Source of the DNA: Phreatobacter sp.
GTDB lineage: Bacteria > Pseudomonadota > Alphaproteobacteria > Rhizobiales > Phreatobacteraceae
Direction: 5' to 3'
DNA length: 64,000 bases
Assembly (NCBI RefSeq): GCF_027532945.1
Contig: NZ_JAPZTZ010000004.1
Span: 62,001 to 126,000 of the forward strand
Below are positions 55,496-57,322 of this stretch, in pieces. The position numbers and the translations under genes are program-made. How positions within the stretch are numbered: the stretch's first letter is position 1; each line of letters opens with the position of its first letter. The notes beneath the pieces are model-generated. The model was not told the origin of the DNA and searched no databases. It worked only from the letters and a program-made list of their open reading frames with translations.

Positions 55496-57322
55496 TCACT
55501 TCTTGCCCTTGCCCTTGGCAGGAGCCTTCGCGGCGGCCTTGGCAGGCGCCTTGGTCGCAGCCTTGGCCGGAGCAGCGGCCTTGGCGGGCGCAGCAGCCTT
55601 GGCCGGAGCCTTCGCAGCAGCAGCCTTGGCCGGGGCCTTCGCAGCAGCCTTGGGGGCCTCGGCCTTCTTGGCGGCAGCGGGAGCGGCGGCGGCCTTCGCA
55701 GGAGCCTTGGCAGCGGCCTTCGCCGGAGCGGCAGCCTTGGCCGGAGCCTTGGCGGCGGCCTTCGCCGGAGCGGCAGCCTTGGCCGGAGCCTTAGCGGGAG
55801 CCTTGGCCGGGGCCTTGGCGGCAGCAGCTTTGGCAGCCGGGGCCTTGGCAGCCGGAGCCTTGGCCGGGGGCTTGGCAGCAGCCTTGGCGGGAGCGGCGGC
55901 CTTCGGAGCCTCGGCCTTCTTGGCCGGGGCGGCCGGCTTGGCGGCGGCCTTCGCCGGGGCCTTGGCGGGAGCCTTGGCAGCCGGAGCTTTGGCAGCCGGA
56001 GCCTTGGACGAGGTCTTGGAACCCGTCGACTTGGCGGCAGCCTTGGAGGCCGGCTTCTTCTCGGCCTTCTTGGCCTCGGGCTTCTTGGTCTCCGGCTTCT
56101 TGGCCGGGGCCTTCGGAGCCGGGGCCTTGCCGCCCTTCACCGCGTTGACGATCTTCTGCGCGGCATCGTCGAGGTCATCCGCCGGGATGACGTTGAGGCC
56201 GGACTCGCGGATGATCTTCTTGCCTTCCTCGACATTCGTGCCCTCGAGGCGCACCACGAGAGGAACCTTGAGGCCGACGGTCTTCACCGCCGCGAGAACG
56301 CCGCGGGCGATGACGTCGCACTTCATGATGCCGCCGAAGATGTTGACGAGGATGCCCTTCACCTTCGGGTCGGCGGTGATGATCTTGAACGCCGCGGTGA
56401 CCTTCTCCTCCGAGGCGCCGCCACCGACGTCCAGGAAGTTGGCCGGGCTCTCACCGTAGAGCTGGATGATGTCGAGCGTCGCCATGGCGAGGCCGGCGCC
56501 GTTGACCATGCAGCCGATCGTGCCATCGAGGGCGATATAGGCGAGGTCGTACTTGGACGCCTCGATCTCCTTCTCGTCCTCCTCGGTGATGTCGCGCAGC
56601 GACACCACGTCGGGGTGGCGGTAGAGGGCGTTGGAGTCGAACGACACCTTGGCGTCGAGCACCTTGAGCTGGCCCTGCTTGGTGACGATGAGCGGGTTGA
56701 TCTCCAGCATCGCCATGTCCTTGGCGACGAACGCCTTGTACAGGATGCTGGCGACCACCTCGGCCTGCTTGGCGAGGTCACCGGTGAGGCCCAGCGTCTT
56801 GGCGATGGTGCGGCCGTGGTGCGGCATGAAGCCGGTGGCCGGGTCGACGGAGAAGGTCTTGATCTTCTCGGGCGTGTCGTGGGCGACCGCCTCGATGTCC
56901 ATGCCGCCCTCGGTGGAGACGACATAGGCGACGCGGCCGGTCTCGCGGTCGACCAGCATCGAGAGGTAGAACTCCTTCTCGATGTCCGAGCCGTCCTCGA
57001 TGTAGAGGCGATTCACCTGCTTGCCGGTCGGGCCGGTCTGCACGGTGACGAGGGTGTTGCCGAGCATCTGCTTGGCGAAGGCCTCGACCTCCTCGATCGA
57101 CTTGGCAAGGCGGACGCCGCCCTTCTCGCCAGCGGCCTTCTCCTTGAACTTGCCCTTGCCGCGACCACCCGCGTGGATCTGCGACTTCACCACCCAGAGG
57201 GGGCCGCCGAGCTTCTTCGCCGCGGCCTTGGCCTCCGACGCCTTGAAGATGGCGACGCCGTTGGAGACGGGCGCGCCGAACTCTTTCAACAGGGCTTTCG
57301 CCTGGTATTCGTGGATGTTCAT
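55496..57322 (-). CDS. sucC: Succinyl-CoA synthetase beta subunit with a 210-residue Lys/Ala/Pro-rich C-terminal extension
   Basis: Residues 1-398 are a normal SucC: ATP-grasp ([48 protein letters not shown]) plus the C-terminal flavodoxin-like domain ([33 protein letters not shown]). Families normally end here. The frame continues for 210 residues made almost only of Lys, Ala and Pro in AKAPAK/PAKAA-type repeats, highly basic and like histone H1 or bacterial AlgP/HU tails, ending KGKGKK. There is no stop or frameshift between the parts, so one polypeptide is encoded. The tail could bind nucleic acid or polyanions, or aggregate; its role is unknown. Confidence 0.95.
55499..56128 (-). repeat. 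Low-complexity coding repeat in sucC (AKP tail)
   Basis: The DNA for the SucC tail is a degenerate tandem array of GCC-AAG-GC(T/C/G)-CC(G/T/C) type units of 9-21 nt. Its codons vary synonymously, indicating an old, selected repeat rather than a recent polymerase expansion. Confidence 0.8.

What the first reader, a model, noticed from the sequence alone, without database searches (positions are those of the whole stretch)
55496..57322. Succinyl-CoA synthetase beta subunit with a histone-H1-like tail
A complete 398-residue SucC is followed without interruption by 210 residues of almost pure Lys, Ala and Pro. Such AKP-repeat tails are known on nucleic-acid-binding bacterial proteins, not on a TCA enzyme. 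Synonymous codon variation in the repeats argues for maintenance. The tail could link metabolism to DNA, RNA, polyphosphate or membrane surfaces.
Basis: partly seen in the sequence, partly recalled or inferred. Interest (0 to 1): 0.8.

Follow-up and report, generated by a model that had tools for sequence, protein, structure and literature searches.

The report
TCA enzyme with histone-like lysine tail
In one genus of water bacteria a central metabolic enzyme carries a long, positively charged, floppy tail like those of DNA-binding proteins; it is real and conserved there, but what it does has not been tested.

Summary
Confirmed. Window 55496-57322 (-) encodes one 608-residue protein: an ordinary succinyl-CoA synthetase beta subunit (residues 1-398) plus 210 residues of almost only Ala, Lys and Pro (net charge +48). 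It is no assembly or frame accident: all 12 genomes held for the genus carry a tail on SucC (11 complete, one contig-edge fragment), and all 11 complete tails end in KK. None of 159 SucC loci read outside the genus has one. The genus is Phreatobacter (one member's contig has exactly the published length of strain NMCR1094). The 11 complete tailed proteins form one clade, so a single gain is simplest. Tail length varies (94-216), but lysine fraction and charge density hardly change; DNA differences concentrate at third codon positions, and all 36 indels in five of six species pairs keep the frame. AlphaFold gives the tail no structure. Two species also carry a tailless sucC elsewhere. Best reading: an electrostatic tether holding the enzyme on a polyanion (nucleoid DNA, polyphosphate, or storage-granule surface); binding is untested. 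Similar segments in this genus also sit on PHA synthase and a wax-ester synthase, so they are not confined to nucleic-acid binders.

The parts
56129..57322 (-). SucC catalytic core, residues 1-398 (ATP-grasp_2 and Ligase_CoA domains)
   Evidence: Pfam PF08442 and PF00549; NCBIfam NF001913 573.9 bits vs cut-off 370; E. coli SucC alignment 1-397
55499..56128 (-). AKP tail, 210 residues, net +48, predicted disordered
   Evidence: composition; AlphaFold pLDDT under 50 for residues 405-608; conserved in the genus
56003..56128 (-). First 42 tail residues, less repetitive; contains the [18 protein letters not shown]-type motif start shared by the closer species
   Evidence: tail sequences and pairwise alignments
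55517..56002 (-). Imperfect repeat array ([12 protein letters not shown] units; 12-, 18-, 24-, 42-nt periods), variable in length between species
   Evidence: Tandem Repeats Finder; motif counts
55499..55516 (-). Terminal KGKGKK; all 11 complete tails end in KK, 9 of 11 in GKK
54398..55285 (-). sucD (alpha subunit), 210 nt downstream of sucC, no tail
   Evidence: ORF 54398-55285, 295 aa; gap
57427..58605 (-). mdh (malate dehydrogenase) ORF upstream; the listed ORF probably starts too early
   Evidence: ORF, named from its sequence (recalled motif), not by a family search

Best explanation
It is a normal, catalytically complete SCS beta subunit to which the ancestor of Phreatobacter added a C-terminal intrinsically disordered polycation. 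Shown here: the fusion, its presence in the whole genus sample, its single-clade distribution, constraint on its composition and frame, and predicted disorder. Inferred: each beta subunit contributes one flexible arm of +24 to +51, which binds negatively charged polymers without sequence specificity, as the KPAA tails of AlgP and PhaF do. The arm would hold part of the SCS pool on the nucleoid, on polyphosphate or at the surface of storage granules, so that ATP and succinyl-CoA/succinate turnover happens there. Loose selection on sequence with tight selection on lysine density and length range is what a charge-based tether needs. I favour nucleoid DNA as the main partner, polyphosphate second.
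For: 12 of 12 genus genomes tailed; lysine fraction 0.22-0.28, net charge per residue 0.21-0.26, at most 5 acidic residues, while length runs 94-216 (11 complete tails). DNA-level alignments: third-position share of differences 24/25, 54/74, 51/81, 42/64, 55/82, 50/91. 36 of 36 gaps in five pairs are multiples of three. AlphaFold core confident, 405-608 under 50. The AlgP paper reports that a similar 154-residue KPAA region is needed for polyP granule spacing and that KPAA peptides bind DNA (PMC9239181, abstract and passages). PPK1 present in this genome; PHA synthase in 11 of 12 genus genomes.
Against: No binding data. The tail is rich in [12 protein letters not shown], with only one KPAA, so the AlgP comparison is by composition. 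The third-position signal can be inflated by aligning non-orthologous repeat units. The tail changes faster than the core (pN/pS 0.12 vs 0.03 and 0.12 vs 0.04 in close pairs, 0.42-0.45 vs 0.06-0.16 in deep ones; the one exception is G008/G005, 0.01 vs 0.02). A crude gap-free prefix count gave no third-position excess for G008/G005 (6, 4, 7), though that count runs past an indel. Pair G006/G011 has two gaps (38 and 4 nt) that are not multiples of three.
Confidence: 0.5

Rival explanations
1. Tolerated passenger: a stop-loss or insertion at the end of sucC seeded a GC-rich repeat that expands and shrinks by slippage; the protein tail is harmless and has no job beyond staying soluble.
For: Repeat structure and length variation; flexible C-terminus of the core tolerates additions; high-GC repeats rarely meet stops; two species keep a tailless sucC elsewhere, so a tail is not needed for the reaction as such.
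Against: 12 of 12 genomes keep it; lysine fraction and net charge stay within a narrow band while sequence turns over; third-position excess in six of six pairs and 36 of 36 in-frame gaps in five pairs. Drifting Lys codons would often give Glu, Arg, Gln, Asn or Thr, yet acidic residues stay at 5 or fewer.
Confidence: 0.25
2. Assembly or scaffolding arm: the tail links SCS to other TCA enzymes (for example the 2-oxoglutarate dehydrogenase complex encoded next door) or to nucleoside diphosphate kinase for channelling.
For: Same gene cluster mdh-sucC-sucD-sucA-sucB-lpd. SCS-NDK complexes in bacteria are known to me from memory only.
Against: SucB linkers in the window are Ala/Pro-rich but carry little lysine (K 0.08 and 0.00, net +1 and 0) against K 0.25 in the tail, so it is not an E2-type linker, and no conserved binding motif is seen in the tails.
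Confidence: 0.12
3. Metabolite-sensing arm: the lysines next to the enzyme's own product are succinylated or acetylated without an enzyme; this flips their charge and releases the arm from its polyanion when succinyl-CoA is high.
For: Dozens of lysines (26-55 per complete tail) on the enzyme that makes or uses succinyl-CoA; bacterial non-enzymatic lysine acylation is a reviewed subject (PMC8556138 seen only as a search listing with the start of its abstract).
Against: No modification data; nothing in the sequence singles it out.
Confidence: 0.06
4. The 608-residue protein is not what the cell contains: the tail is clipped after translation and the 42-kDa form works alone.
For: Lysine-rich disordered tails are protease-sensitive (general knowledge).
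Against: Conservation of the tail to its last KK in all 11 complete genes would be unexpected if it were only removed.
Confidence: 0.07

Closest known systems
ADP-forming succinate-CoA ligase subunit beta (SucC; NF001913, TIGR01016; E. coli 1SCU/1JKJ chain B)
   Same: Full-length core, both domains, Glu207 at the place of the E. coli Glu197-beta that is Ala in the 1JLL mutant, gene next to sucD
   Different: 210-residue AKP tail after the usual end; the best E. coli match stops at its residue 387 of 388
AlgP (AlgR3) of Pseudomonas aeruginosa, C-terminal KPAA domain
   Same: Long disordered Lys/Ala/Pro C-terminus of similar size (195 residues, 154 in repeats) and charge (whole protein +55) (PMC9239181, passages)
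   Different: AlgP has a small helical N-terminal domain, not an enzyme; its unit is KPAA, the SucC unit is [12 protein letters not shown]
PhaF phasin and Cobetia PhaC2 C-terminus
   Same: AKP-type C-terminus on a storage-granule protein or enzyme, proposed to bind DNA (PMC9239181 and PMC8686332, passages)
   Different: Granule proteins, not a TCA enzyme; AAKP motif occurs 2 times in the window tail and in only 2 of 11 tails
WS/DGAT with AKP tail and PhaC with AKP N-terminus in the same genus
   Same: Metabolic enzymes with comparable Lys/Ala/Pro segments
   Different: WS/DGAT tail read only in G006 and G011; PhaC extension is N-terminal, less lysine-dense (0.08-0.13 over the N-part) and mixed with acidic residues

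Membership tests
SucC (NF001913 equivalog) | Score above the curated cut-off | tested here: met
   573.9 vs 370 bits, residues 1-396
SucC (NF001913 equivalog) | Catalytic Glu (E. coli Glu197-beta) kept | tested here: met
   EINPL aligned with EINPL, Ala at that place in 1JLL; E207 invariant in 28 rows
SucC (NF001913 equivalog) | Solved-structure fold of SCS beta | tested here: met
   Foldseek best hits are SCS beta chains, E 1e-51 to 1e-45; rmsd 6-7 A over the whole chain because the two halves are set differently in the model
SucC (NF001913 equivalog) | Paired with SucD in one cluster | tested here: met
   sucD 210 nt downstream
SucC (NF001913 equivalog) | Ends near residue 388-403 | tested here: not met
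   608 residues; outgroup SucC 389-403. Length is not part of the family definition, so membership stands
Histone-H1-like KPAA-repeat proteins (AlgP/PhaF) | Long Lys/Ala/Pro-rich C-terminus predicted disordered | tested here: met
Histone-H1-like KPAA-repeat proteins (AlgP/PhaF) | KPAA tandem repeats | tested here: not met
   1 KPAA in the window tail, 0-3 in the 11 complete tails
Histone-H1-like KPAA-repeat proteins (AlgP/PhaF) | DNA or polyP binding | not testable with these tools
   needs bench work

The most novel reading that the evidence does not exclude
Phreatobacter has turned a TCA-cycle enzyme into a chromosome- or polyphosphate-bound metabolic sensor: the tail holds SCS on a polyanion, and succinylation of the tail lysines by the enzyme's own product releases it, so the location of the enzyme reports succinyl-CoA.
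Probability: 0.05. Interest if true: 0.85.

Novelty: new variant of a known kind. Interest (0 to 1): 0.5.

Why it matters
AKP tails are discussed for DNA-binding and granule proteins. A clade-wide, constrained example on a central metabolic enzyme would show that bacteria use the same charge-based arm to place housekeeping enzymes. Two species hold a tailed and a tailless sucC side by side, and tail lengths differ naturally from 94 to 216 residues, so the effect of the tail can be tested directly.

Tried and rejected
Assembly or frame error: rejected, 12 of 12 genus genomes incl. three single-contig ones (G001, G002, G011) carry it.

Tail shared widely among SucC: rejected as far as sampled. 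C-termini read at 159 loci outside the genus, 159 without tail (recount; L199 missed by the recount pattern but read). All listed non-genus rows with an open frame of 450 or more were read; those lists are cut at the best matches, so lower-ranking genomes and other phyla were not seen.

E2-type linker: rejected on lysine content. Frame-shifted or antisense coding: the plus-strand ORFs 55503-56459 and 55297-55794 overlap the tail only because the GC-rich repeat lacks stops. Same-genome copies of the tail: a protein search found only itself plus two weak chance-like hits, with 150 of 2459 candidates scored; a DNA pattern then showed the RluB-like segment. Literature: four searches for such an SCS tail gave no description of one; the PhaM paper held none of the terms I looked for.

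The tailless paralogs of G006/G011 are not copies that lost the tail: in the tree they fall away from the tailed clade, beside Ancylobacter with support 92/94, placement deeper down weak.

Full report
What is there. The minus strand at 55496-57322 encodes a single 608-residue protein without interruption. Residues 1-398 are an ordinary ADP-forming succinate-CoA ligase beta subunit: NF001913 573.9 bits against a cut-off of 370, Pfam ATP-grasp_2 and Ligase_CoA, an end-to-end match to E. coli SucC and Foldseek matches to SCS beta chains. The remaining 210 residues are A 107, K 53, P 33, E 5, S 5, T 4, G 3. AlphaFold on 28 aligned sequences is confident for most of the core and under 50 for residues 405-608, with no secondary structure there; the tail had no aligned relatives in that run, so this says 'no structure predicted', not more.

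Whose it is. The window lies in a 4.13-Mb, 35-contig genome. A same-genus genome (G001) is one contig of 4,974,952 bases, exactly the length given for Phreatobacter sp. NMCR1094 in the abstract of PMC6742797 (listing with abstract start). I therefore call the genus Phreatobacter; species names of the others are not known from any call.

Conservation. All 12 genomes held for the genus carry a tail on SucC: 11 complete genes and, in G007, a contig that ends inside the core but holds the tail. Measured from the motif AQKIVxAV the 11 complete tails are 94-216 residues; lysine fraction 0.22-0.28, net charge +24 to +51, at most 5 acidic residues. G011 and G006 are the most different, with 9 and 8 aliphatic or aromatic residues, the other nine with 0-4. 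All 11 end in KK. In three searches of the order (397 genomes), class (385) and phylum (398), plus 80 named loci from genome contigs, I read the SucC C-terminus at 159 loci outside the genus and found no tail at any of them (12, 20, 23, 39, 68, 71). The lists are capped at the best matches, so this is a sample weighted to Alphaproteobacteria. On an 82-row core tree the 11 tailed proteins form one group with support 98/99.

Is it maintained? Nucleotide alignments of tails made without reference to the protein give differences at codon positions 1/2/3 of 1/0/24, 13/7/54, 20/10/51, 15/7/42, 20/7/55 and 22/19/50 for six pairs; under equal rates the third-position counts have binomial P from 6e-11 to 1.8e-5. 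In five pairs 36 of 36 gaps are multiples of three; the sixth (G006/G011) has gaps of 38 and 4 and 51 columns out of register. Protein-guided pN/pS is 0.12, 0.12, 0.22, 0.01, 0.18, 0.27, 0.42 and 0.45 in tails against 0.03, 0.04, 0.07, 0.02, 0.06, 0.07, 0.06 and 0.16 in cores for eight pairs. So the tail is under constraint, weaker than the core's in seven of the eight pairs. Against this: units of a repeat can be aligned to the wrong partner, which would raise the synonymous count; and a crude gap-free prefix comparison gave 6/4/7 for G008/G005 because it runs past an indel, 5/1/15 for G000/G003, 2/0/3 and 1/0/5 for two others.

Codon pattern. Ala before Pro is GCT in 118 of 187 cases, Ala before Lys in 2 of 256 (Fisher P about 6e-55), giving the recurring unit AAG GCT CCG GCC AAG. 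This may reflect amplification of one founder unit, or avoidance of T-A at the codon border; I did not separate these.

Surroundings. Gene order on the minus strand is mdh, sucC, sucD, sucA, sucB, lpd (names from the sequences). None of the neighbours has an AKP tail. G006 and G011 also carry a second, tailless sucCD elsewhere (SucC 398 aa, 82% identical to the window core), beside genes whose Pfam domains fit glyoxylate and formate metabolism: a TPP enzyme, a TIM-barrel isomerase-like protein, a 3-hydroxyisobutyrate-dehydrogenase-like protein, a molybdopterin oxidoreductase and a fused acyl-CoA-ligase-type protein. It groups with Ancylobacter, not with the tailed clade, so it looks acquired, and it shows that these cells can make a tailless subunit.

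Other AKP proteins in the genus. A DNA pattern for KAPAKA found, besides sucC, a RluB-like pseudouridine synthase (N-terminal, G000 and G003), PHA synthase (N-terminal, G003), topoisomerase I (C-terminal, G003), and a WS/DGAT wax-ester synthase (C-terminal, G006 and G011); single hits elsewhere were not AKP-rich. The main PHA synthase has a long N-part in all 9 loci read before the script stopped (of 12), with K 0.08-0.13; in G005 and G008 it is short and only mildly biased. The WS/DGAT gene lies about 4 kb from a second PHA synthase gene in both genomes. AKP segments in this genus are thus found on nucleic-acid enzymes and on storage enzymes.

How it most likely works. A disordered arm with one positive charge per four residues and almost no negative or hydrophobic ones is a generic polyanion binder. 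[quoted passage not shown] The window genome has PPK1, and PHA synthase is found in 11 of 12 genus genomes, so DNA, polyP and granules are all available partners. The data fit a tether that needs charge and reach rather than exact sequence. Which polyanion, and whether the cell profits, is inference. The main rival is a tolerated repeat passenger.

Literature. Searches for an SCS with such a tail listed none; 'Phreatobacter' with 'succinyl-CoA' gave 0 papers. The library is open-access only, so absence there is weak.

Verdict. Real, clade-wide, constrained, function unknown; a known enzyme with a known kind of tail in a combination I found described nowhere in the searches above.

Noticed in passing
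window 55286-55495 (-); L008, L009, L010 between sucC and sucD: The sucC-sucD gap is 9 nt in G001 and G006, 443-489 nt in G005, G008 and G011, where it holds a small ORF (about 126 aa, membrane-like, no Pfam match), and 208-217 nt in six genomes incl. the window, where only the 3' part of that ORF is still recognisable, so it looks like a decayed insert.
   Followed up: partly
L121 and L122 (G011, G006): Second, tailless sucCD of outside origin, near genes with domains fitting glyoxylate and formate metabolism and a further SucC-like gene at 38-39% identity.
   Followed up: partly
L169, L170: WS/DGAT wax-ester synthase with a long AKP C-terminal tail, about 4 kb from a PHA synthase gene.
   Followed up: partly
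L217-L225: Main PHA synthase of the genus has a long low-complexity N-terminal extension, Lys/Ala/Pro-rich in most of the 9 loci read.
   Followed up: partly
window 55499-56128 (-): Ala codon choice in the tail depends on the next residue: GCT before Pro 118/187, before Lys 2/256 over 11 genes.
   Followed up: partly
L037, L041, L042 (Bradyrhizobium) and L106: Unrelated small genes sit between sucC and sucD in other Rhizobiales too: a 159-aa protein of one kind in Bradyrhizobium and a toxin-antitoxin-like pair in L106 (named from sequence, not searched).
   Followed up: no
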